52,087 nucleotides of DNA from the IMG/VR virus record IMGVR_UViG_3300047300_000518, positions 1 through 52,087 of that record; one strand, 5' to 3'. Positions 16,313-28,996 of the stretch are shown here, piece after piece. Under the pieces are notes generated by a model, which was not told the DNA's origin, did no database searches, and saw only the letters and a program-made list of their open reading frames with translations. This DNA is from a virus. Made by a program: the position numbers and the translations under genes. Positions within the stretch are counted from its first letter, which is position 1; every line of letters starts with the position of its first letter.

Positions 16313-19300
16313 TTAAATTTTAGAAATTTGTCTCATAAACTCGCGGTTAGACTTAGTAGTCTGAACCCCACCTACAACACCTGCTTCGCGTTTCTTCTGC
16401 TCTTGTGGAGCTTTTAGTAAGTCTGACAACGGTTGAACTTTAAGTCCGTTTCTACGCTTAGCATCCTGCATTTCCTGCCATTCTTTACGAGCTTTAGCCA
16501 TACCATCAGTGTCACGAGCATTTGATGCTTTGACATAATCACGCTTGATTTCGCCTGTTCTATCTTTATAGAACTGCTCTGTATCAATAGCCGCACCCTG
16601 CACAAACGTTCTGTCTGTAATCTTGTTGCTTGGTAAACCAATGGCTACTGACAACATATCCAAGAAGCTAATATCTTCAGGCTTAATTACCACATCACCA
16701 TTCTTAAGAGTTACGCCATCCATCAAGCCAAATCTAGCTGCTTTCATGGACTGTGCCAATCCGGCTGGAGATAATCTTTCCAGACCTTTGTAGTACTCAC
16801 CGTCGGCCATCAGTGCCACACCTTCACCAGCACGTTGTATCAAGCTACCAGTAGCACCAGTTAATAATGCATAACCACCTTGAGCGATACCAGCGCGGCT
16901 CAAGTCCACATCAGCGTATGGCAAGATTGAAAGCATCTGACCCATACCTAACTTACCTGACAAGTCCACACCAGCAAACTTCGGCGCACCTTTTAGGATG
17001 ATGTCGGCTAACGCCTTGTCACCTATCATTTTACGTAGCGTCAACTCAGGATTGTCTGGCTCGTCATCATCACCAAACGCAGCACCCATAATCCATGCGA
17101 TTGCAGCAAAACCTGGGAAGCCCATCAAGCCACCAACTGCAAGCGTATGACCTAGGGTAAACCCTAATGCTCTACGAGCAATCATTTTTTCTTGCTTAGA
17201 CGCACCAGCAAACGAGTCTTTAATCAACTTAGCCATCAAGCTAATCTGAATTAACTGGAACTTACGGAACTGGGTAGCTAAACGACCTAAGCCCTGACGT
17301 GTAATACGTGGAGCATTAAAGCCTGAATAGTCACCGTGGGTACGTAAAATCACATCATCAGCATATGCTACAGCCTGTTCTTTATTGCTACCTGCTTTAA
17401 TTTCTAAGCGATATGCGGCAACTGCTGTGGCTACACGGTTAATAGATTCAATATCTTGAGCTACTTTACGTAGCTTTTCAATAGCCTTACCGGCAAGCTC
17501 AGCTTTTGAGCCTTCTGTATCTCTCCAACGACCTAAATCTTGGTCAAGACTAATATCAATACGACCGTTGTTTACCAAAGTTTCGATGGCTTCACGCACA
17601 TCGGCTGGTAGTTTAGAGTAACTTTCTTCTGACAAACCTTCGTTCTTAATCATGTTGAAGATTTGTTTGTAGGCTGTAGTGAACTCACCCCATGCCTGGT
17701 TGTAGTCATGCTTACCAGCTACATACGGTAATGACATCATAAATGGCTGAGTCATGTTTTGTAAGTAGTACGCTGGGTTAGTCAAAAGCATCCAGAATGA
17801 TGTTGCACCCAATGCCTTATTAATAACTGGGCTTGGTTCGTAGCTTAGACCTAATGCATGACGACGCATGAACTCGTTGTAGTATTCACGACGGACATCA
17901 CGACCTGGCTTTTGCTCATCAGCTTCCTTGCGCATTTGTTGCAAGGTGTCGTAAATCTTACCGCTGTTATGCAAGGTAGAAATAAAGTGAGCAGTCGCTA
18001 ACCCTTGGGTAGCAAACGAACGCATCATGTCATCTTCAGCACCAGCAACGTTTTTACGACGACGCTCAGACTGGCGTGCAGACTGTTCAGCTAATAATGT
18101 AAGGTGTAGGTCAGCAATCAAACGGTTAATTGCTTGAGTGGCTTTAGCACTACCTGCCTCATCCATCGAATCATTTGCTAGGTTACGCAAGCGGTAGAAC
18201 ACGTTTTGTACGTCACGACCACCATACACGTCTTGCTTAGCGCTATCCTTCTCAAATGCTTCTGAAACGTAGCCGTACCCCTCTGTGAGAAGTTGTTCTT
18301 CAATCTTACGGCCTTCACGCTTAGTTTCAGCAAAAGCAACGTAGTAATCAGTTTCGTTCTTCTCAAGCTCACGGATTTTAGCTTGTGCTTCTTTGCGTTG
18401 TTCAACAGTTTTGCTCTTATCTTTAGCATCTTTTTCAGCCTGCAAGTATGCATTTGACTTAGCGACAACTACATAGTTACCGAAACGCTTTAGTGGAGCA
18501 TAGGGTTTACCCGCACGAACAGCCATCAAAGTGCTGTAGTCTTTTAGTGATGCAGCTTTCTTTTGCTCTAAGCTTGCCACTTCAATCATGTCATTAGCAT
18601 CACGAGCAGCCTTAATTAATGCATCATACTCAGAGTTAATGTTCTCAATAACACCACGCTTCATATCTTGTAGGGTGTCATGGCCATGCTTAAACACAGC
18701 TTTAACTACATCCTGAGCATCTTTTGGTAGCGCATCAAACTCAGCTTTTAGCACTGGGTCAATATCTGGAGCTTTCTTGAGGTAGCCTGGGTCATATGCC
18801 CACTTACCATCCACGGTGGATTTCTTCAAAAATGCATTGACTGTGCCTGGGCCAGTACCACGAACCTTAGCATCTAACTTGTCGTATTGTTGCAAGATAA
18901 GGTCTACACGACGTTCGTATTTAGTCTTAACAGCTTGTTGCTCACGAACTAGTTTTACGTAGTCTGTAGCTGATTTAACATATTTAGATGCAATACGAGC
19001 CAAGTCTTCTGTAAATGCCAAGTATGTAAGACCACGGCGACCTAAGTCACGGATTGTGGCAGTAATCTCAGCAACTGGACCTTGTAGCTGTTTTGGCAAC
19101 TTCTGGATATTACCTTGCTGTCTACGTGAAAAACGCACATTACCTGATGACAAACCGCCTTCATAACTAACCACACGAGATAAGGCGTTGTCTGAAAACA
19201 ACACCATGTTTTTAGTTTCTCTGTCGCGTTCATCTAATACGTTCTCAAGGATGGCCATGTATTCGTCTGACCCAGAAGGGATAAGCATATCCAAAGGAAT

Positions 19301-22300
19301 ACTTTGTTTGTCAGAAGAAACGATGTTTAGACGTGAGCCTTTTATTGCCACGTACGATGGTTTAAATCCTTTTATACCACTAAAATCAACGTCTTTTAGT
19401 AGAGGTATTTTATTAACAGCCACTGTGCCAGCTAATCCACGGCTACTACGGTCAAGGTATGTATTACCTTCAATACCAAGCATGCGTAGATATTCAGACA
19501 CAACCTGTTTAGACATGAATCTGCCTTGTTTAATTGTGTCAATTACGCTATCAGGAAGCTGGAAGAACAAATCTGAAATGCCTTTGTTTTCTAAAAACAC
19601 TAGTGCGTCTTGCAAATCACGCCCAGTCATCTCATCTAAGTCCATGTTGATTTCTTCAACCATGTTTGTTTTTAGTTCTTCTGACAACTTAGCTTCTAGT
19701 ATTTTTAGAATCTCAGGTTGTTTACTTAGGCTTACGTCCAAATCAAGAATCTTGTCTTCCGTTGTCATTGGAAGGTTGCGAAGAACCTGACCTGGTTTTT
19801 TGGCAGCATCAACTACAGCAAAGTCTTCTTCTTTAATTCTGTCGATAGCAGCTAGCGAATCTTTATAAAACTTGACGCTACGCTCTAAGTCCTTACGCAC
19901 GGCATCTGGTAGTTTTTTAGTGAATATGCCTTTTTTATTTAGCTTTTCTTCTGTTTCCGCTAGTAGTCTTGTGTTTGCGCGTTTAGAAGAATCTATAGCT
20001 TCTTTAACGGTAACGTTATTGTGTTGTAGTCTATTAAGAACTGACTGTGCAATCGAGTTTTCCATGAACTGTGCAAAGTCTTTTCTATACAAATCCAGGT
20101 CAAACGAAGTTAACTCTGTGTAGTCTTTACCTTTATAGGTAACTTTACGGTCTGCAAATACACCAAACACATCACTAAACTTGCGTTTAACGTCAGCACG
20201 CATATAGTCAAGGGCAATACCAAAACGCTGAGCTACATACAAGCCCCAGCCGTAAGCAACAGCACCTTCACCGGTGCCAATAGCACTGGTTTTAAAGTTT
20301 CTGAACTCTGCAGATGTACCATGATATGTGCCACTGATTTCAAGCTTAGCTGCACCAAACGCTAAATCGACTAGGTTATTGGCTGATAACTGGTCAAACT
20401 TACCAAAACCAATCTTACGAAGTGCTACCTTCATGGCAGCCATCAAAGTTCTAAACCAAGCTGCAATCGGACCTTCTTGTTTTGCAATAGCTTGTGGTTG
20501 AATACCTAAGGCTACGGCTTCTTCTACAAAGTATGCAAGTAGTTCATCTAACTGCTCGTTAGTGGTTAGCGGCTTACCTTCAGCTTTTGCCACTTCTACA
20601 GCAGCATCAACACGACCTTGTGCATTTCTAGCAATAATTGATTCTAAACTGTCTTTTTTAGATTTCGACCAATCAAGAACTTGGGCTGTTAGTTTTCTGT
20701 AGTTATCAGTTCCTAACAAGTTTTCCATGCCAAGATGCACACCTACTTCATGCAAGAACACAGGCAGCTCTTGACCAACCTGAATCTGACTTGCAATCAT
20801 GTATACACGTCTACCATATACAAAAGCCTGAATATCACCAGCTTTTTTAACTACGGCTTTGACATACTTTGGTAATTCTTCGTATGAATCAACAATTGTT
20901 ACTAGCTCGTCAAAGCGTTTGTTGGCTGAGAACATCTGTTTTAGCAGGCTCTTAAGGTCAGTTGCATCGTAAGTTGAGTTCTTACCAGCGCCTTCGCTAC
21001 GGCTAAACTGAGTTTTTTCTGTGGCCGCAATCAAATCATTGTCAGTGATTAACTGGTTCAAACCAGCTAAGTTATCTTTCTTGTCGTAAACCAAGTCAAC
21101 GACATACCCTTGCACAACAGGAGTCTGGTCTTCGTACAAACCTAAACCATGCTGTTCTGCGTACTTATTCCATAGGGCTTCTGCTTTTTCAACAGCAGTT
21201 TTACCTTCTGTACCGCCTTCTTCAGCAGCGGCTTCAGCTTCCATTTCTTTCTTGACGTTACGACGCTTAACCTTTTTAGCTGTTTCTTGAGCCAAGGCTG
21301 TCAAACGGTCTGTAATGTCCTGCATTACTTGCGTATCTTCTTTGTCAAGTGCTTGTTCGTACAATGCACCTAAGGCGTCTTTATCAAGTTTGCCTTCTTT
21401 TAGCTTTTCTACACGGTCTTTATATGATGCTTTCTCAAAGTCAAATACATTGGCAGTACCCTGACTGCCTTCTTTAAGCGTAGCAAAACCAGCCTTCTTG
21501 CCTTTGTCTGCATCACCAAATGCTTCTTCGTCAGATAGCACAGGGGTAGTATCTTCTGTAGCACCTTCTTCAAGGGCTGTTACTTCTTTTTCTATTTCTT
21601 CCGCAGACTCAGTAGTGTCGGTATAACCTTCAGCTTCACGTACACCAAACAATCTTTCTGTGTCGTCACGGTTAATATCCATGGAATCAGCAGCTTCCAT
21701 GATGGTTTCAAAGTTACCAATCTTACGAACGGTAACTGGCTGGATTTTGTACTTCTTAGCAAGAGCCTGTACGTTCTTGTCCGTCATGTCCTTGAGGTAT
21801 GCCTTAGCAATCTCAATATCACGCTCTTTGTTTTTGCTCTTAGCAAAACGTTTTGCAAGAATCTCGTCAGCTAACTCAACACGTTGCTCGTCAGACAACC
21901 TAGCAGTTTTACCCTTTTCGGTATCTTTCTTAGTGTTGGCCTTCAAGAATGCATCAAGTTTTCTAAACCCAGCACCAGACAAATTAGTATTTGCAGTTTT
22001 GATTAGGCTCTTCTTGATGTCAGAGTAGCGTTTACCAGCTGCAATACCTTTATTAATAATGCCGTTGATAAGACGAGCTACAGCTTTACCACGTTTTTCT
22101 GCAGTACCAACTAGTAGGTCGTCTTGTTCAAACGTTATTTCTTGACGCGTTCTTTGCTTTTCATCTTGACGACTTTGAACGCTAGGTCTTCCTGCGGTGC
22201 CGATAGTGGTGCCAGCCCGTACTCCGCCTGCTGCTGGCTGTCCAGCTTGCTTGCTAGTCTGTCCTTTAGCGACACTTCCTGGTTGCTCGGATTGAACGCT

Positions 22301-24031
22301 GCTGGGTTGAAGAACCCCTGGTCCTCGACCATCCCCTTCAGTTGTTCCGCCTTGCTCTGATACTGCTCGAACCCCGGCATCACTTTGCTTTTGCAGTTGC
22401 AATTTTCCATCTAATTGTCCTTTCGGTAATAAATCAATTGTTGGTACTCGCTGCTCTGCTGGAATACCGGCTAGTTCATCACGTAGTGCGTGAATAGGTT
22501 CAACCTTAGCTAACTGTTGTTGTGACTTAACAGCTTTCAGAGCATTGTCCAAATCTAACTGAACACGAGCTAAGACTTCTTCAATAGATTCAGCCTGTTC
22601 AACGTACTGAGATACAGCTTTGGCTAATGAATTTGGATTTAGTGCTTTACCGCCAGTTAATGCATTGGCTTGTAAATAAGCATCTTCTACTGCTAACTGA
22701 ACTGGTGATTTTTCTTTTTCTGTAGCTACAAATTTATCCACAGCCTGGTTAAGCTGGTTTTCAGTAAAGTAAACCTTACCCTGGAATTTGTATACGTTCT
22801 TAGTTGGACTAAGCGGAACTGTCTCACCACCATATTTTGCATATGTGGCTTGTCTTACTTTGTTTAGCTCAGCTAGCTCTGCTTGCTGTTGTGCAAGAGT
22901 TTCTTGGTCTTTTTGTTGCTGTGCAGAGGCTTGAGCAGCTGCCTGTTGAGCTTGTTCAGTAGGTGTTACCTGCTGTGTTGTTTGTGGAAGATTAATTGTT
23001 GCAGCTGGAGCTTGACTATCAATAGCTTTATTAATTGCACCAGACTCTGTATTTGTTTCTGTGCCAATATCATTAGCATCTGCTAAAACACTGCCTGAAC
23101 GTTGTTTTGTTAATGCACCGACTGTAAGACCGGTACCGCCGCCCATAATACCGCCAAATGCAGCTGAACCTAATACGCCTTTAGCAATTGATACATCTGG
23201 GTCGTATTCATTGGCTGCTACGTTTGCGGATAACTTAGTTGCACCTTCTTCAATAAACTCAGAACCAAATTCTTTAGCACCTGTTTTTAGAATGCTCGTA
23301 GTAGCACCCTTGGCTAATGCAGCTTCAGCACCAAACGCACCCATAGCAAAACCAACCGGAGCTGCCATTAATGATGCTTTTCTTGCGGCTCTTGTAGCTA
23401 ATTCCTGACGCTCTGCTTCTGCTAAATCTGCAAAACGTGGTGAGTTCATAATAGCGTCGTAAGCTTCACCAGCAGCATCACCACCAGCCATAGCACCACC
23501 AGTAGCCATACCGGCGCCAGTAGCAGTTCTAGCAATACCTTTTTCAGCCATGCCTAAAGCACCGGCAGCGCCTCTAGCCCCTTTAATTGCAGAACCTGGA
23601 ACAACAAAAGAACCTAATGCTTGAGCTGCAGTAAGTAGCGGGCTTTCAGTTACATAAGAACCTACACCTTTTAACTGTGTGCCAATCTCATCAGACTCTA
23701 ATGCACGACCAAGCTTCTCTTTTGAAATTTGTGATGCAAGACTTTGCTTACGTTCACCTGACTCAATAAATTCACCAAGGCCTTTAGAAAAGTCTGTACC
23801 TGGTTCTACGAAGTCAGCAATAGATTTAACACCACCTACGGCAGCGTTGGCAAACTCAATAGCTAAATCATTAGCTACAGCTGCAATATTTCTTGATTTT
23901 GGAATGCCTAGATAAACTGCTGTGTTGTCCGCATCTAAACCAGTAATTCGACTAACTTGGTCAAAAATGGTTTTGTCGTCTACATCTTTAAGCGCCGGGT
24001 TAGCGGCGCGTAGTTCATCAATTGTCGGCAT
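16313..24031 (-). CDS. Giant polyvalent protein: metallopeptidase, ADP-ribosyltransferase and LPD38-like domains
   Basis: 2,572 residues, 15% of the window. Order: an N-terminal helical part; a Gly/Ala-rich hydrophobic region (about 115-315) suited to membrane crossing; a Gln/Ala-rich linker; a low-complexity Gly/Gln/Ser linker near 540-635; helical parts with a possible helix-turn-helix (KKYKIQPVTVRKIGN); an MPTase-PolyVal-like domain with HEVGVHLG (zinc HExxH at 1094-1098); an ART-like domain opening YHGTSAEF at 1236 and AYGWGLYVAQRF; long coiled coils; and an LPD38-like C-terminal part (about 2240-2420). Such polyvalent proteins are packaged and injected with phage DNA to act on host proteins. 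The neighbouring coiled-coil gene fits an ejection complex. Domain borders are estimates by eye. Confidence 0.85.
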   Translation of the reverse strand: MPTIDELRAANPALKDVDDKTIFDQVSRITGLDADNTAVYLGIPKSRNIAAVANDLAIEFANAAVGGVKSIADFVEPGTDFSKGLGEFIESGERKQSLASQISKEKLGRALESDEIGTQLKGVGSYVTESPLLTAAQALGSFVVPGSAIKGARGAAGALGMAEKGIARTATGAGMATGGAMAGGDAAGEAYDAIMNSPRFADLAEAERQELATRAARKASLMAAPVGFAMGAFGAEAALAKGATTSILKTGAKEFGSEFIEEGATKLSANVAANEYDPDVSIAKGVLGSAAFGGIMGGGTGLTVGALTKQRSGSVLADANDIGTETNTESGAINKAIDSQAPAATINLPQTTQQVTPTEQAQQAAAQASAQQQKDQETLAQQQAELAELNKVRQATYAKYGGETVPLSPTKNVYKFQGKVYFTENQLNQAVDKFVATEKEKSPVQLAVEDAYLQANALTGGKALNPNSLAKAVSQYVEQAESIEEVLARVQLDLDNALKAVKSQQQLAKVEPIHALRDELAGIPAEQRVPTIDLLPKGQLDGKLQLQKQSDAGVRAVSEQGGTTEGDGRGPGVLQPSSVQSEQPGSVAKGQTSKQAGQPAAGGVRAGTTIGTAGRPSVQSRQDEKQRTRQEITFEQDDLLVGTAEKRGKAVARLINGIINKGIAAGKRYSDIKKSLIKTANTNLSGAGFRKLDAFLKANTKKDTEKGKTARLSDEQRVELADEILAKRFAKSKNKERDIEIAKAYLKDMTDKNVQALAKKYKIQPVTVRKIGNFETIMEAADSMDINRDDTERLFGVREAEGYTDTTESAEEIEKEVTALEEGATEDTTPVLSDEEAFGDADKGKKAGFATLKEGSQGTANVFDFEKASYKDRVEKLKEGKLDKDALGALYEQALDKEDTQVMQDITDRLTALAQETAKKVKRRNVKKEMEAEAAAEEGGTEGKTAVEKAEALWNKYAEQHGLGLYEDQTPVVQGYVVDLVYDKKDNLAGLNQLITDNDLIAATEKTQFSRSEGAGKNSTYDATDLKSLLKQMFSANKRFDELVTIVDSYEELPKYVKAVVKKAGDIQAFVYGRRVYMIASQIQVGQELPVFLHEVGVHLGMENLLGTDNYRKLTAQVLDWSKSKKDSLESIIARNAQGRVDAAVEVAKAEGKPLTTNEQLDELLAYFVEEAVALGIQPQAIAKQEGPIAAWFRTLMAAMKVALRKIGFGKFDQLSANNLVDLAFGAAKLEISGTYHGTSAEFRNFKTSAIGTGEGAVAYGWGLYVAQRFGIALDYMRADVKRKFSDVFGVFADRKVTYKGKDYTELTSFDLDLYRKDFAQFMENSIAQSVLNRLQHNNVTVKEAIDSSKRANTRLLAETEEKLNKKGIFTKKLPDAVRKDLERSVKFYKDSLAAIDRIKEEDFAVVDAAKKPGQVLRNLPMTTEDKILDLDVSLSKQPEILKILEAKLSEELKTNMVEEINMDLDEMTGRDLQDALVFLENKGISDLFFQLPDSVIDTIKQGRFMSKQVVSEYLRMLGIEGNTYLDRSSRGLAGTVAVNKIPLLKDVDFSGIKGFKPSYVAIKGSRLNIVSSDKQSIPLDMLIPSGSDEYMAILENVLDERDRETKNMVLFSDNALSRVVSYEGGLSSGNVRFSRRQQGNIQKLPKQLQGPVAEITATIRDLGRRGLTYLAFTEDLARIASKYVKSATDYVKLVREQQAVKTKYERRVDLILQQYDKLDAKVRGTGPGTVNAFLKKSTVDGKWAYDPGYLKKAPDIDPVLKAEFDALPKDAQDVVKAVFKHGHDTLQDMKRGVIENINSEYDALIKAARDANDMIEVASLEQKKAASLKDYSTLMAVRAGKPYAPLKRFGNYVVVAKSNAYLQAEKDAKDKSKTVEQRKEAQAKIRELEKNETDYYVAFAETKREGRKIEEQLLTEGYGYVSEAFEKDSAKQDVYGGRDVQNVFYRLRNLANDSMDEAGSAKATQAINRLIADLHLTLLAEQSARQSERRRKNVAGAEDDMMRSFATQGLATAHFISTLHNSGKIYDTLQQMRKEADEQKPGRDVRREYYNEFMRRHALGLSYEPSPVINKALGATSFWMLLTNPAYYLQNMTQPFMMSLPYVAGKHDYNQAWGEFTTAYKQIFNMIKNEGLSEESYSKLPADVREAIETLVNNGRIDISLDQDLGRWRDTEGSKAELAGKAIEKLRKVAQDIESINRVATAVAAYRLEIKAGSNKEQAVAYADDVILRTHGDYSGFNAPRITRQGLGRLATQFRKFQLIQISLMAKLIKDSFAGASKQEKMIARRALGFTLGHTLAVGGLMGFPGFAAIAWIMGAAFGDDDEPDNPELTLRKMIGDKALADIILKGAPKFAGVDLSGKLGMGQMLSILPYADVDLSRAGIAQGGYALLTGATGSLIQRAGEGVALMADGEYYKGLERLSPAGLAQSMKAARFGLMDGVTLKNGDVVIKPEDISFLDMLSVAIGLPSNKITDRTFVQGAAIDTEQFYKDRTGEIKRDYVKASNARDTDGMAKARKEWQEMQDAKRRNGLKVQPLSDLLKAPQEQKKREAGVVGGVQTTKSNREFMRQISKI

Positions 24032-24050: not shown

Positions 24051-25442
24051 TTAGCTGTTTAAGTATACAACTTGGTCGTCAGTTAGTCCACGTCCACCTT
24101 TACCATATTTCTTAATTAGCTCAGGCTTTGATAAGGTCTTCTTGTCTTTTTCAAATGCCGCTGGTAAATCACGAACATCAATAGCAGACTTTTCAGCTAC
24201 ATAAGCTTGACGGCGTTCACGACTTGCACGAGATTTTTCTTCTGTTTCAAGTGCAGCTTGTTTACGTTTCTCAGCTGATTTAGCAGCTGGAGAACCTTCT
24301 GGTGGAACGTAGCTAGGCTTTTTCTCAGTCTCAATAGCCTTCTCAGGCTTTTTAGATTTATCAGCGTCAAGGTTTTTACCAACTTGGTCAGCTAGATTTT
24401 GGGTAGTCCCTGGAGAATTAGCGTCTTTAAGAACCCCTGCATATTTATCTTGTAGCTGTCTTAATCGGGCAGCAAAATCTTTTGCAGTTGGGTCAAGGTT
24501 CTTAAGTTCATCAAAGTATGCCTTAACACCTTCTTGACGGAAGTTATCTTTTGGCGTGCCCTTAGCGTTGTATGCACGGTCAACAACACCACCAGTGCCT
24601 TTGTATTGACGCTCAATATCCAAGTTCTCACGCTTAATACTGAGTTCTTCACGTTGATTCAAGTATGTTAATAGCTTATCTGGACCACCTAAAAGGCTAA
24701 CTGCGCTATCTTGGAACTTACCATATGCTGCTTTTTCCAATGCTTTTAATGCGTCTTCACCGTTCGTAAACGTCTGTAGTACATCACCCTTAGGGCCAAG
24801 AACGTTAATTTTTCCAACACCATCTTTACCTGGAACAAACTCAGTTTTTAAACCATTTTTGTTTGCAAGTTCTGATAAGCCTTGCATACCTTTACTTTCC
24901 CATGTACCACGGGCTAAGGCTAAATCTTTGTTTAAAGTGCTACGCTTAAGGTCGAACTCGTCGTCTAAATCAGATGCACGTGATTCTTTCTTTAGACCCA
25001 AAGCTTCTACGTAACCCTTACGGCTAACACCAGCAGCAGCTTTAGTGTAATCACCCATGGCTTGACGGTTTGTATACTCGCCAGCAGTTAAGTCAGGTAA
25101 TGCACTCTTAACACCAATATTTTCTCTTAGTGCGCCAGCGGCAGCTTGAGCAGAGGCTTTTTCACCTTCAGGACCAAAACCAGCAGCCTGGTCAGATAAC
25201 ATCTTAGCTTGCTGAGTACCAATACCCGTATCTGCAGTTTGAAGTGCTTCTGTGTAATCGTTCTTTTGACCTACACGTCCGTATGTTTCTGCAAATTTAG
25301 TATCAAGAGCTTTCTGCTCTTGCATTTCTTGACGCAGCTTTTCACGCTGCATCTGACGTAGCTCTTCTTCGCCTAAACGTTCATATGTATTTAGGCCTGA
25401 TTCTAAAGCCTTACCAAGTGCTAAACCCCAGTTAATTGCCAT
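24051..25442 (-). CDS. Probable internal virion (ejection) protein, coiled coil
   Basis: 463 residues, no membrane span, with long charged helices (YERLGEEELRQMQREKLRQE, REELSIKRENLDIERQYK) and an Ala/Gln-rich middle. The C-terminus is very rich in Lys, Glu and Ser. Composition and position next to the giant injected protein resemble T7-type core proteins (gp14-16 region) in role, not in sequence. Its start overlaps the upstream stop. Function is inferred. Confidence 0.65.
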   Translation of the reverse strand: MAINWGLALGKALESGLNTYERLGEEELRQMQREKLRQEMQEQKALDTKFAETYGRVGQKNDYTEALQTADTGIGTQQAKMLSDQAAGFGPEGEKASAQAAAGALRENIGVKSALPDLTAGEYTNRQAMGDYTKAAAGVSRKGYVEALGLKKESRASDLDDEFDLKRSTLNKDLALARGTWESKGMQGLSELANKNGLKTEFVPGKDGVGKINVLGPKGDVLQTFTNGEDALKALEKAAYGKFQDSAVSLLGGPDKLLTYLNQREELSIKRENLDIERQYKGTGGVVDRAYNAKGTPKDNFRQEGVKAYFDELKNLDPTAKDFAARLRQLQDKYAGVLKDANSPGTTQNLADQVGKNLDADKSKKPEKAIETEKKPSYVPPEGSPAAKSAEKRKQAALETEEKSRASRERRQAYVAEKSAIDVRDLPAAFEKDKKTLSKPELIKKYGKGGRGLTDDQVVYLNS

Positions 25443-26563
25443 TATTGTACTTTCGAGTAATCAACTAATAAATAACCATCTTCACCCATGACAGCGGCTT
25501 CAGGAACTTCTTGAGCCATAACGCCAACATATCTGCCATAGCCCCACTTGTCTTTGTATTCGTCTTTATACTCAAAGCTATATAAAGTTGTACCTTTTCG
25601 TGTCATACCTTCATATTTGATGTTCTTTTTAATACGAACGTCTGAACCGTACTTCATATAAGCAGCACCGAGTGTACCGATTGCTGAACCTAAACCAGCA
25701 GAACTTGTAGCATTAGCCTGTTGTTGAGCGTTGTATGCATTAACATCAGCGTTGTATTTCTGAACACCTAATGTTCCAACCTGACCCCAACCTGACATAG
25801 CACCAGTATTAGCTTGGTTCATTGAAGAACCTAAAGCACCGTAGTTAGCCATAGTAGTTTGACCAGCACCTAGTGCTTGCCCGCCAGCAGTTAAAGCTAA
25901 ACCTGTTGAAGATGCTTGGTTACCAAACTGACCTTGTGCAAGAGCAGCAGCGTCCATTTTCTTAGCCCAGCCTAACTGAGTAGCAGCATCACGAGCTTTA
26001 GTTGCAGCAGCTGCAGATGTTGCAGCTTCCATAATTCCTGAACTACGAGCCTGGCCTTGATAACGACCAGATGTTGGGTCAATACCATAAGCTTTCATTT
26101 GACGTGCTGTAGCTTGGTCTTGAATATCAAACTGTGACTTAACATCACCTAAGGCTAATGCGGCTTGACGGTTAACTTCTGCTTCACCACCAGCTTCTGC
26201 AGCTTGTTTATAAATATCTGCACGTAGTGGAGTACCTTTTTCTTGATACTCTTTCATAGCAATATCTGCCGCTTGAATCTGTTTTGTCTGCATTTCTTTA
26301 TCTAATGCAAACTGCTCATCAGCACGAACTTCTTGTTTTAACGTAGCCTCTTTCATAGCAGGCCATACTTCTGTTTTCCACTGGTTTAGATATTCTTCTG
26401 AAATTTCAGCAAGTTTTTGTTGTGCCAAACCAATGTTAGGGTCTGCTGCAGGAGCACCGCCGCCACCGCCTTTACCACCTTCAAGAGTGTCAGGACGATT
26501 ACTGCCAAGCTTCTTTTGGAAAGCTCGTTCAGGTAACATATCAAAGTGGGCGTCTAATCTCAT
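25442..26563 (-). CDS. Virion protein with C-terminal S74-type chaperone
   Basis: 373 residues. A Gly-rich opening, a long Ala/Gln-rich helical region (about 45-300), then SDVRIKKNI at 307-315 and VGVMAQEVPEA and VDYSKV near the end: the intramolecular chaperone of endosialidase (Peptidase_S74), whose Ser-Lys dyad would be S307 and K312. In tail spikes it folds trimers and is cut off. Here the body looks like an internal/ejection protein rather than a beta fibre, and the S74 part is short (about 67 residues, lacking the usual helical tail), which is odd. Overlaps the GNAT gene by 4 bases. Confidence 0.75.
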   Translation of the reverse strand: MRLDAHFDMLPERAFQKKLGSNRPDTLEGGKGGGGGAPAADPNIGLAQQKLAEISEEYLNQWKTEVWPAMKEATLKQEVRADEQFALDKEMQTKQIQAADIAMKEYQEKGTPLRADIYKQAAEAGGEAEVNRQAALALGDVKSQFDIQDQATARQMKAYGIDPTSGRYQGQARSSGIMEAATSAAAATKARDAATQLGWAKKMDAAALAQGQFGNQASSTGLALTAGGQALGAGQTTMANYGALGSSMNQANTGAMSGWGQVGTLGVQKYNADVNAYNAQQQANATSSAGLGSAIGTLGAAYMKYGSDVRIKKNIKYEGMTRKGTTLYSFEYKDEYKDKWGYGRYVGVMAQEVPEAAVMGEDGYLLVDYSKVQ

Positions 26564-26979
26564 TGTCTAACTCCAAGCCAACGGCATTCTTCTTTAAGCA
26601 TTCCGTATAAAATCATGTCTGTGCCATCGCTAGCACCTCTTCTTATCACACCTTCTTGCACAAAGCCTAAATGCTCATCAAAGCGTCTAGCCTCTATGTT
26701 ATCAACTCTTACCAATCCTGTCACGCGATTACAGCCTAATTGTATGAATGGATAAGCAAAAAATCTGAATAAGAACTCTCTGTTTAGCCACCGTTTTCCT
26801 TCAGCCGCAACATGCATACATATTGACGGGCCGTTATACATGTTATATACCACACCTGCCAGGATTTTACCATCCTCATACACACCTAAACCGATAGCCT
26901 CACCGAAGTCGTTCTCGTCAACCCGAGCCCCAACCCAGTCAATAATCTCTTTATCGCGTCCGTAAACGAATTCTTTCAT
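26560..26979 (-). CDS. GNAT-type N-acetyltransferase
   Basis: 139 residues with the GNAT layout: beta strands around ILAGVVYNMYNG, FLFRFFAYPFIQLGCNRVTG, and the ending VDNIEARRFDEHLGFVQEG, the typical motif in which a helix leads to -LGF-. No clear RxxGxG/A acetyl-CoA loop is seen, so it may belong to the RimJ-like side of the family or be a degraded copy. Phage GNATs among structural genes are common; the substrate is unknown. Confidence 0.85.
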   Translation of the reverse strand: MKEFVYGRDKEIIDWVGARVDENDFGEAIGLGVYEDGKILAGVVYNMYNGPSICMHVAAEGKRWLNREFLFRFFAYPFIQLGCNRVTGLVRVDNIEARRFDEHLGFVQEGVIRRGASDGTDMILYGMLKEECRWLGVRQ

Positions 26980-27185
26980 TGTCCTGAGTAGTTTAGTGCT
27001 GCAATAATCTCGTTAAGTTTGCTAACAATTTGGTCGTTTGTAGCTCCAGCGGCTAGCTGGTCAATCTGTCTTGTACCAGGACGAACCCCAGTCATAATCT
27101 CAATATTTTCCCGCATGGCTGTAACCACTTGGGTTAGTGTCTTATCTGTTGAACTGTATGGCGGAATAGCAGGCTTTTTTATCAT
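26976..27185 (-). CDS. Small virion-associated hypothetical protein
   Basis: 69 residues: an N-terminal PAIPPYSSTDKTLTQVVTAM, then MTGVRPGTRQIDQL and a helical end IVSKLNEIIAALNYSG. This looks like a small phage protein seen next to tail genes, of unknown role. It overlaps both neighbours by 4 bases, so it is co-translated with them. Confidence 0.65.
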   Translation of the reverse strand: MIKKPAIPPYSSTDKTLTQVVTAMRENIEIMTGVRPGTRQIDQLAAGATNDQIVSKLNEIIAALNYSGQ

Positions 27186-28996
27186 GCAACACCTCTAGTT
27201 TCACCAATACTTGTGCCCATAACAAACGACCTAACAGGTACGTTTCCTGTAATTTTTACTTCATAAACGTAGGCTTTGCCTGTAGCTGGCATACGAATCG
27301 GCTCTTGATTTAAGACACCGGTAGTAAATACTTGCTGTTCGTCAGCGTAGATAATCACCTGAATGTTTCGTACATCCGCTTGAGTTGGAATATCAGCCAA
27401 AATACTACCGTTAAACTCATGAAAATTCATTAAGTCGTCATTAAACCCGCCGCCTAGACCGTTTGTAGCCGATGCAAATAAGGCTTGGTTACTTGCAATA
27501 ACACTTGCTACAAACTGGTTATACGCTACCTGGTCATCCAAATAGTCATAGTTAGCTTGTAACTTAATTGTAGAAAAGCTCATCGGGTTTGGCATGACAA
27601 ACTTTTTAGACTTCCACTCGTATAAAGTGTTGTTAACCTGGTCTGCATCTAGCTGATAAAGCTTGTTATCAAACTGAGAAATGGCGTAGATATAACCCGT
27701 GCCGCGGTCAATGTAGACAGAAGTAGCGTCAAAGCTTAAGAACGACAACGGTGGAATATCACCACGGGCAATAACCAAAGCCTCAATACCTGTCGGTGTA
27801 TTGTGAAAACACATATACAAGTTGTTATAAATAACCCCCAGCATGCTTGTCGGAGCTAAAGTTTGCCATTCGTCACGAGTGTACAAAGGTGTTGTAATTA
27901 CGTCTTGAGTACCAGCACCAATAGAAACCAAGCCGTTAGGGGATGCATAAAGCACACCATACTGGTCAGAAGCGATTGACCGCTTAGAAGCACATGGTTG
28001 TGGAATAGGTAGCTTAGTTTGTGACATAGCCGCTGGAGTAGTACCAGTAATCAAATACGGGAACTTATTAGTCATAACAACTAATGTAGTGTCATAAACA
28101 CCTAAACCAACGATTGGGTATTCAACTGCCAATGTGTAAACAGAAGGCCATGCATGGGGCAAATATGGCTCACAGAACCATACTTCGTTGTCCTTAAATC
28201 CAGCCAAAATACCGTTAGGCATAGCCACAAGGCCTTTTAGTCCTGACGGCGGCGGTTCAAATTCTAAAGTTGTAAGTCCTTCTCCCAACTGATTAACAGT
28301 TAAGTTATCCACAAAACTGGTTGTAGAAATAGGAATCTCAGCCACAAAACTATAAACAACAGATGTAGCACCAACAACAGTTCTATAGATGCGACGATGT
28401 GTGATGTTATATCCAGTTGTAGGAGCTGCAGCAAATCCATTAACTGTTACTGTTGCTCCACTACTGGATACTGTTACATTAGCTGCTGGACTTGGACCTG
28501 ACTCTTCTGTTACTGCACCAAAAGTTGATACGTAGGTATATACATACGCTCTATCTTCGGCTGGGGCCGTTGTTCCAGAAGCTACTAGATTAGGAGCCGT
28601 TGTTGGGTTTGGTACACCCATATATAACCATGAATCTGGGAATGGGTCTGTACCTGCACCGCTAGATGTTGCAAGTGCATAGTTTGTCTTTTTTGGTGCT
28701 CCGTCACCTGTATAGTAAATACGGTAATCTGAAACGTCAGCTACTGGACCAGGGACTACATCAACGTCTGCAGCCCATGTAAGCCACTTAAACGCACCGC
28801 CAGCACCTTCTAGTTTATAAACCGTCTGAATACCAGGGGTTGTAGGAGCATAAACTTCCGTTGGCTTTCTCCATGAGCGTAGCTCACGAGATTGTAATTT
28901 TACGTTACTTGCTTCTTGGGCTTGATTGCCTTCAAGTAGGGTAGGGCCAGTTCTTGGTACTGTACCTGAAAAGTTATCAATCTTTATGACTGGCAT
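27182..28996 (-). CDS. Large beta-rich tail protein (nozzle/stem-like)
   Basis: 604 residues, no membrane spans, opening MPVIKIDNFSGTVPRTGPTL and rich in Thr, Val, Pro, Gly and Tyr. Two central segments with AYVYTYVSTFGAVTEESGPSP and YNITHRRIYRTVVG have the look of fibronectin/Ig-like or beta-propeller strands. Phage proteins of this type sit between lysis and ejection genes and are usually annotated as tail or stabilisation proteins; a role like T7 gp12 (tail nozzle) is plausible by size, composition and position only. Confidence 0.65.
   Translation of the reverse strand: MPVIKIDNFSGTVPRTGPTLLEGNQAQEASNVKLQSRELRSWRKPTEVYAPTTPGIQTVYKLEGAGGAFKWLTWAADVDVVPGPVADVSDYRIYYTGDGAPKKTNYALATSSGAGTDPFPDSWLYMGVPNPTTAPNLVASGTTAPAEDRAYVYTYVSTFGAVTEESGPSPAANVTVSSSGATVTVNGFAAAPTTGYNITHRRIYRTVVGATSVVYSFVAEIPISTTSFVDNLTVNQLGEGLTTLEFEPPPSGLKGLVAMPNGILAGFKDNEVWFCEPYLPHAWPSVYTLAVEYPIVGLGVYDTTLVVMTNKFPYLITGTTPAAMSQTKLPIPQPCASKRSIASDQYGVLYASPNGLVSIGAGTQDVITTPLYTRDEWQTLAPTSMLGVIYNNLYMCFHNTPTGIEALVIARGDIPPLSFLSFDATSVYIDRGTGYIYAISQFDNKLYQLDADQVNNTLYEWKSKKFVMPNPMSFSTIKLQANYDYLDDQVAYNQFVASVIASNQALFASATNGLGGGFNDDLMNFHEFNGSILADIPTQADVRNIQVIIYADEQQVFTTGVLNQEPIRMPATGKAYVYEVKITGNVPVRSFVMGTSIGETRGVA

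What the first reader, a model, noticed from the sequence alone, without database searches (positions are those of the whole stretch)
16313..24031. 2,572-residue injected-type polyvalent protein with peptidase and ADP-ribosyltransferase
One gene spans 7.7 kb and strings together a Gly/Ala hydrophobic region, a HExxH metallopeptidase-like module (1094-1098), an ART-like module (from 1236) and an LPD38-like end. Such proteins are thought to travel with phage DNA and act in the host at once; the combination and size here make a strong candidate for a multi-function host take-over system. Modules and order are read directly; activity is inferred.
Basis: partly seen in the sequence, partly recalled or inferred. 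Interest (0 to 1): 0.8.

Follow-up and report, generated by a model that had tools for sequence, protein, structure and literature searches.

The report
Phage-injected protein with swappable peptidase cassette
A very large virus protein, probably packed in the particle and fired into the bacterium with the DNA, carries a metal-dependent protein-cutter and a host-modifying enzyme in a central slot that close relatives swap wholesale for other protein-cutters while keeping both ends, which suggests a modular delivery system with interchangeable payloads.

Summary
The gene is real: 24031..16313 on the minus strand, 2,572 residues. It is a phage polyvalent (injected-type) protein with an HExxxH (not HExxH) metallopeptidase (1013-1235), an ADP-ribosyltransferase with the H-Y-D active site (H1237, Y1265, D1614), and a LPD39-like/PLxRFG (not LPD38) all-helical C-terminus. 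It lies at the end of an ejection-protein operon matching Burkholderia phage JC1, whose giant protein at that place is in purified virions (PMC9144972). New here: relatives with near-identical ends carry unrelated centres. Of 61 full-length relatives found through the C-terminus alone, 33 have the HExxxH peptidase and 26 of the other 28 an HExxH peptidase of at least four other types in the same place. Peptidase type turns over almost at random on the C-terminal tree, and pairs 97% identical in the flanking 9.6 kb differ in cassette. HExxxH cassettes are flanked on both sides by short paired motifs (here TQFSR/VRFSR) that the second type lacks. Best reading: a virion-delivered carrier whose resident peptidase cuts cassette and effector loose at its own sites. 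Family and architecture are well supported; cleavage, injection and activity are inferred.

The parts
16313..24031 (-). giant polyvalent ejection-type protein, 2,572 aa
   Evidence: full-length relatives L002, L004, L005 (and L003 over 44-2572)
23102..24031 (-). N-terminal Gly/Ala-rich delivery domain (res. 1-310), related to N4 virion RNAP N-terminus
   Evidence: phrog_18222 4.8e-49 and phrog_2206 1.4e-8; profile scores N4 gp50 27.5 vs shuffle maximum 12.1, JC1 gp69 27.0 vs 5.6
21662..21829 (-). helix-turn-helix-like segment (about res. 735-790); Sigma70 region-4-like in relatives
   Evidence: alignment A1; Sigma70_r4/r4_2 in a few relatives, best 3.8e-5; no hit in the window protein itself
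20999..21013 (-). 5' boundary motif TQFSR (res. 1007-1011), candidate processing site
   Evidence: in a stretch with pLDDT below 50
20327..20995 (-). HExxxH metallopeptidase domain (res. 1013-1235)
   Evidence: helix/strand pattern of the model
20735..20752 (-). zinc motif H1094-E1095-V-G1097-V-H1099
   Evidence: invariant 71/71, HExxxH 38/38
20522..20545 (-). E1163..E1170 (ELLAYFVE): candidate third zinc ligand
   Evidence: 71/71, but AYFxEEA was one of the search seeds; 24/38 by a strict regex in the unbiased set
19172..20347 (-). ADP-ribosyltransferase module (res. 1229-1620) interrupted by a variable helical insert
   Evidence: ART-PolyVal; H1237 47/50, Y1265 48/50, D1614 39 D + 5 E of 50; BFVD structure matches to ART-PolyVal proteins, 7e-11
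19124..19138 (-). 3' boundary motif VRFSR (res. 1632-1636), candidate processing site
18377..19111 (-). LPD39-like region (res. 1641-1885); the cassette junction lies at its start
   Evidence: LPD39 in 10/51 relatives, best 2e-21; junctions
18479..18496 (-). PLKRFG signature (res. 1846-1851)
   Evidence: invariant among the five closest
16325..18361 (-). all-helical PLxRFG C-terminal module (res. 1891-2569)
   Evidence: NF032893 7.4e-89; model pLDDT 81, pTM 0.72, no PDB match
24051..25442 (-). 463-aa gene upstream, found only in close relatives
25442..26563 (-). virion structural protein (373 aa), homologue of JC1 gp64
   Evidence: phrog_8003 6.9e-47; phmmer 5.5e-25
26560..26979 (-). acetyltransferase of the ejection operon, homologue of JC1 gp63
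   Evidence: phrog_4470 1.5e-46; 7.6e-31
27182..28996 (-). internal virion protein (604 aa), homologue of JC1 gp61
   Evidence: phrog_511 8.6e-154; 2.1e-94

Best explanation
It is a virion-packaged ejection protein of a podovirus that doubles as a carrier for interchangeable enzyme cassettes. Made late, it would be packed with the DNA, and its Gly/Ala N-terminus and helical PLxRFG C-terminus would take it through the tail and envelope. The zinc peptidase in front of the C-terminal module then cuts the polypeptide at paired short sites flanking the cassette (here TQFSR and VRFSR), freeing the peptidase-ART part, and the ART modifies host proteins with NAD+ to favour takeover. Shown: domains, catalytic residues, operon position, fixed ends with swapped centre, near-universal presence of a peptidase of changing type, paired type-specific boundary motifs. 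Inferred: packaging and injection of this protein, peptidase activity, cleavage at the motifs, and ART activity and targets.
For: Catalytic signatures. Operon homologous to JC1 gp61-gp69, whose giant gp69 (which has a related peptidase, E=9e-12) has 51 unique peptides in purified virions (PMC9144972). N-terminus related to N4 vRNAP and JC1 gp69. Close relatives share ends but not centres. 59/61 relatives sampled through the C-terminus have a metallopeptidase motif in front of it, chance 0.0044 per protein. 26 type changes on 74 tips, shuffled mean 29.9. Motif before C1 in 28/39 type-1 vs 1/25 type-2 proteins, p=6e-8. 5' and 3' motifs of one protein match better than shuffled pairs, 0/5000. Codons of the paired motifs often differ synonymously (29 of 93; window Ser AGC vs TCA), so likeness is largely at peptide level. 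Both motifs lie in low-confidence, probably disordered linkers.
Against: No biochemistry and no virion proteomics for a PLxRFG-type member. N4 vRNAP has the same layout (zincin before a helical end) yet is packaged unprocessed (PMC5512222, PMC12633501). Motif pairing could reflect shared ancestry or module-end linkers: FS-type tails also follow other modules. Type-2 pairing is weak (184/5000). The window's own motif pair was not the best-scoring 7-mer. Seven relatives carry the peptidase with no ART between it and the C-terminus, so freeing the ART cannot be its only role. PDB fold searches gave no match.
Confidence: 0.55

Rival explanations
1. The metallopeptidases are host-directed effectors. 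They are swapped because hosts evolve resistance, as with polymorphic toxins, and the flanking motifs are mere linkers.
For: Almost random turnover of peptidase type fits an arms race. Type 2 resembles the lethal-factor family (ATLF, E=0.0012). Several relatives carry a peptidase and no other recognised cargo.
Against: Some metallopeptidase is almost always kept (59/61), in the place just before the C-terminal module, which points to a role in the carrier itself. Boundary motifs change with the peptidase type.
Confidence: 0.25
2. The zincin is a structural or packaging domain, as suggested for N4 vRNAP, and is not used as a protease.
For: N4 vRNAP has hydrophobic N-terminus, cargo, zincin and a large helical C-terminus and is ejected uncut; its MPTase region is needed for encapsidation (PMC5512222, PMC12633501). 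A similar N-terminus is present here.
Against: Catalytic residues are strictly conserved, and unrelated zincin sequences with intact HExxH replace one another, which a purely structural role would not require.
Confidence: 0.15
3. A plain anti-restriction (DarB-like) protein, as many homologues are annotated.
For: phrog_10089 'DarB-like antirestriction' matches the C-terminus, 2.8e-60. Some relatives with this C-terminus carry a helicase (PBC5).
Against: No methylase or helicase family hit in this protein; the shared part is the carrier end, not the enzymes.
Confidence: 0.04

Closest known systems
Polyvalent proteins with zincin MPTase and Tox-ART-HYD2-type ART (Iyer et al. 2017, PMC5512222)
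   Same: Large multidomain phage protein next to virion genes; HEXXXH-type MPTase (explicitly described there); ART with H-Y-D active site; autoprocessing already proposed there.
   Different: That paper does not report swapping of the peptidase cassette at one fixed site between near-identical carriers, near-universal retention of a peptidase of changing type, or paired type-specific boundary motifs (text searched). It does note extensive mosaicism in Helicobacter PBECR proteins.
Burkholderia phage JC1 / Bcep22-like giant 'DarB-like' protein gp69 (PMC9144972)
   Same: Same operon place and neighbours; contains a related HExxxH-type peptidase domain (E=9e-12) and a related N-terminal region; found in virions by mass spectrometry.
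   Different: Cargo is transglycosylase, methylase and SNF2 helicase; the C-terminus is LPD38 (1.9e-33), not PLxRFG.
N4 virion RNA polymerase gp50 (PMC12633501)
   Same: Related N-terminal region; HExxH domain directly before a large helical C-terminal part without known fold.
   Different: Cargo is an RNA polymerase; C-terminal parts not detectably related; ejected unprocessed.
PLxRFG proteins of Lastavirus SopranoGao/LASTA, Rhizobium RHph_TM3_14A, Sinorhizobium PBC5
   Same: Same C-terminal module (RHph 1.6e-117, PBC5 1.3e-143; SopranoGao and LASTA by tblastn); RHph has the same gene order.
   Different: Cargo differs: inorganic pyrophosphatase (RHph), helicase (PBC5); a tblastn of the peptidase-ART cassette found only four weak partial matches among all phage records, none in these phages.

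Membership tests
phage-type polyvalent protein | several domains of unrelated activity in one large polypeptide | tested here: met
   peptidase, ART, N-terminal and PLxRFG modules
phage-type polyvalent protein | encoded among virion structural genes | tested here: met
   downstream of internal virion protein and structural genes, syntenic with JC1 gp61-gp69
phage-type polyvalent protein | present in virion and delivered to host | not testable with these tools
   only by homology: JC1 gp69 in virions (PMC9144972)
zincin MPTase, HEXXXH clade | HExxxH helix with downstream glutamate helix | tested here: met
   HExxxH 71/71 and 38/38; E1163/E1170 conserved, partly seed-biased; strand and helix order in the model
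classical HExxH zincin | HExxH | tested here: not met
   no HExxH in the protein
ART-PolyVal (PF18760) | score above the curated cut-off | tested here: inconclusive
   18.8-22.9 bits against 31.2 in the window protein; relatives of the same region reach 1e-22
ART-PolyVal / Tox-ART-HYD2 | H (strand 1), Y (strand 2), D (strand 5) active site | tested here: met
   H1237, Y1265, D1614 conserved in 47, 48 and 39(+5 E) of 50
LPD38 (PF18857) | profile match | tested here: not met
   no hit; JC1 gp69 is a positive control at 1.9e-33
LPD39 (PF18858) | profile match | tested here: inconclusive
   none in the window protein; 10/51 relatives over the same region, best 2e-21
PLxRFG domain protein (NF032893) | score above 100 bits and PLxRFG signature | tested here: met
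   299 bits, PLKRFG at 1846-1851
DarB antirestriction protein | DNA methylase and SNF2-type helicase | tested here: not met
   no such hits
N4-like virion RNA polymerase | RNA polymerase domain | tested here: not met
   phrog_2206 match confined to residues 122-511

The most novel reading that the evidence does not exclude
A self-excising cassette system: an injected phage carrier has one slot into which peptidase cassettes are exchanged together with their own pair of cleavage sites, so that whichever peptidase is resident can cut itself and any partner effector free after delivery. This would be a swappable-warhead logic comparable to polymorphic toxins, but virion-borne and peptidase-gated.
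Probability: 0.35. Interest if true: 0.8.

Novelty: new variant of a known kind. Interest (0 to 1): 0.6.

Why it matters
Whether the zinc peptidases of polyvalent proteins process their own polypeptide or attack the host has been open since 2017. The paired, type-specific boundary motifs and the natural swap pairs (nearly the same phage, different peptidase) turn it into a direct test with predicted cut sites. If right, it shows how phages exchange injected payloads without re-evolving the delivery machinery, and it offers a family of site-specific metalloproteases with co-inherited candidate substrates.

Tried and rejected
LPD38 at the end: not found; replaced by LPD39-like/PLxRFG. HExxH reading: no such motif. 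Homology of the C-terminus to the N4 vRNAP C-terminus: hhalign probability 1.3%, rejected. Chimeric assembly as the cause of the swaps: judged unlikely because cassettes continue in frame, the same junction recurs in contigs from different samples, and each type occurs in several contigs; not excluded for any single contig. DNA direct repeats as the reason for the paired motifs: partly disfavoured by synonymous codon differences, although 64 of 93 same-residue codons are identical. Composition bias as the reason for the N-terminal match to N4: disfavoured by shuffles and reversal. MPTase presence counted in the first large set was discarded as biased, because the seeds lay in the peptidase; the C-terminus-seeded set was used instead.

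Full report
OBSERVATION. The ORF at 16313..24031 is real and uninterrupted, but it runs on the minus strand (2,572 aa, ATG). The record is an IMG/VR virus contig of 52,087 bases with portal, major capsid, terminase, tail-fibre and lysis genes of a podovirus-like phage. The protein contains no HExxH. Pfam gives only a sub-threshold ART-PolyVal match (1236-1304, 18.8 bits against 31.2), no LPD38, and NCBIfam gives a strong PLxRFG match (NF032893, 299 bits).

DOMAINS. Scanning IMG/VR with the peptidase-ART region found over 100 relatives. In 71 non-redundant peptidase domains HExGxHxG is invariant. In a second set, recovered only through the C-terminal module, HExxxH is present in 38/38 and HExGxHxG in 37/38. 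In 50 ART modules the active-site residues fall on H1237, Y1265 and D1614, the H-Y-D configuration given for polyvalent-protein ARTs (PMC5512222). ART-PolyVal reaches 1e-22 in relatives, and the central model matches ART-PolyVal proteins in BFVD. The C-terminus is all-helical in the model (pLDDT 81, pTM 0.72) without a PDB counterpart. The segment before it is LPD39-like in relatives (best 2e-21). LPD38 is absent here but present in JC1 gp69, so that search had a working control. The Gly/Ala-rich N-terminus is distantly related to N4 virion RNA polymerase and JC1 gp69 (27 bits against shuffle maxima of 12 and 6).

CONTEXT. The gene ends an operon: 604-aa internal virion protein, acetyltransferase, 373-aa virion protein, 463-aa gene, giant protein. 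Burkholderia phage JC1 has gp61, gp63, gp64 ... gp68, gp69 in the same order, with 2e-94, 8e-31 and 5e-25 matches for the first three. JC1 gp69 (4,515 aa) has 51 unique peptides in CsCl-purified virions (PMC9144972), and my peptidase profile finds a related domain in it (E=9e-12). Rhizobium phage RHph_TM3_14A has the same gene order and the same PLxRFG end, but an inorganic pyrophosphatase as cargo. So this place in the genome encodes virion-delivered giants, and the cargo differs. Four relatives in metagenome-assembled genomes are labelled Oxalobacteraceae, Burkholderiaceae, Zoogloeaceae and Silvanigrella, so a mainly beta-proteobacterial host range is likely (inference).

SWAPPED CENTRE. Five full-length or near-full-length proteins (the window's and L002-L005, found with the whole sequence) share N- and C-termini, but the centre is peptidase+ART in three and different HExxH domains in L003 and L004. 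At DNA level L002 and L004 are 75% identical up to the cassette and 80% after it, with 2.9 kb against 1.26 kb of unrelated sequence between. Closer pairs are sharper: L118 (type 1 + ART) and L120 (type 2) are 92.5% identical before and 96.8% over 9.6 kb after; L122 (type 2) and L123 (type 1) are 99.5% over 6.4 kb before and 96.8% over 9.6 kb after. The downstream junction falls repeatedly at the start of the LPD39-like segment, just before a conserved LPK.

A PEPTIDASE IS ALMOST ALWAYS KEPT. To avoid selecting for the peptidase, I scanned with the C-terminal alignment (seed pattern inside the C-terminal module). Of 61 proteins with a complete 5' end, 33 have the HExxxH domain; 26 of the other 28 have HExxH within 300 residues before the LPD39-like segment, where shuffled sequence gives 0.0044 per protein. 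Motif contexts fall into at least five types: HExGxHxG; HE[IV][GA]HxxD; HELIHA; HEVQHAIQ; HEVIHYL and others. On a tree of the C-terminal module the types need 26 changes on 74 tips, against a shuffled mean of 29.9: turnover is nearly random with respect to the carrier. The ART occurs only with type 1 (27 of 39 against 0 of 35 others in the tree set). Some relatives have the type-1 peptidase directly before the C-terminus without ART (L053, L055, L064, L068, L069, L071, L086).

BOUNDARY MOTIFS. Type-1 cassettes are bracketed by a short motif of the form x[KRQ]F[GS][KR], before the peptidase (30/38, lenient pattern with a 10% base rate) and about 15 residues before the C-terminal part (28/39, strict pattern with a 0.9% base rate; 1/25 in type 2, p=6e-8). 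Type-2 proteins more often have [VILA]xRx[SAGR]R there (10/25 against 0/39). The two motifs of one protein resemble each other more than shuffled pairings (18.8 against 16.8 +/- 0.39, 0/5000; type 1 alone 0/5000; type 2 184/5000). In the window they are TQFSR (1007-1011) and VRFSR (1632-1636), with Ser encoded AGC and TCA; 29 of 93 same-residue codons differ overall. In type-1 relatives not in the first set the 3' motif recurs (15/24 strict) but the lenient 5' motif is weaker (16/45). These motifs were found by inspection and then tested on the same set, so the p-values are optimistic, and relatedness of the rows is not removed. FS-type tails also end other modules in this protein class (seen, e.g. 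'..DPDIRYSR..').

MECHANISM. Shown: architecture, catalytic signatures, operon position, swapping, retention of a peptidase, paired motifs. Inferred: packaging and injection of this protein; cleavage by the resident peptidase at the motifs; release of the ART; host modification. The self-processing idea was proposed for polyvalent proteins in 2017 (PMC5512222). The natural swap pairs and cognate motifs are new support. Against it stands N4 vRNAP, which has a zincin in the same relative position but is packaged uncut (PMC5512222, PMC12633501).

NOVELTY. The protein is a member of a known class (polyvalent proteins, HEXXXH MPTases, H-Y-D ARTs). The hypervariable peptidase slot with co-swapped flanking motifs was not found in the papers searched, which cover open-licence literature only. 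Hence: new variant of a known kind, with a clear bench test.

Noticed in passing
L002:10001-18505 (residues about 990-1300): An extra insert before the peptidase contains an L,D-transpeptidase (YkuD)-like domain; YkuD matches 2 of 37 N-terminal regions.
   Followed up: partly
window 21662-21829 (-) and the same region of relatives: Helix-turn-helix segment resembling sigma-70 region 4 in several relatives; possibly DNA binding within an injected protein.
   Followed up: partly
L139/L145 (L004) centre: Type-3 peptidase shares the ETLxHELxHA context of the N4 vRNAP zincin (phrog_2206 4.5e-14; weak), so one cassette type may be shared with virion RNA polymerases.
   Followed up: partly
window 24051-25442 (-): 463-aa gene between the structural genes and the giant gene; no match in the phage records and found only in close relatives; its position corresponds to JC1 gp68, a virion protein.
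   Followed up: partly
window 26560-26979 (-): An acetyltransferase gene sits inside the ejection operon and is found in 40 of the fetched loci and in JC1 and RHph_TM3_14A; its role is unknown.
   Followed up: no
L136 and L154: The only two of 61 full-length relatives without any zinc-peptidase motif; they form one clade.
   Followed up: no
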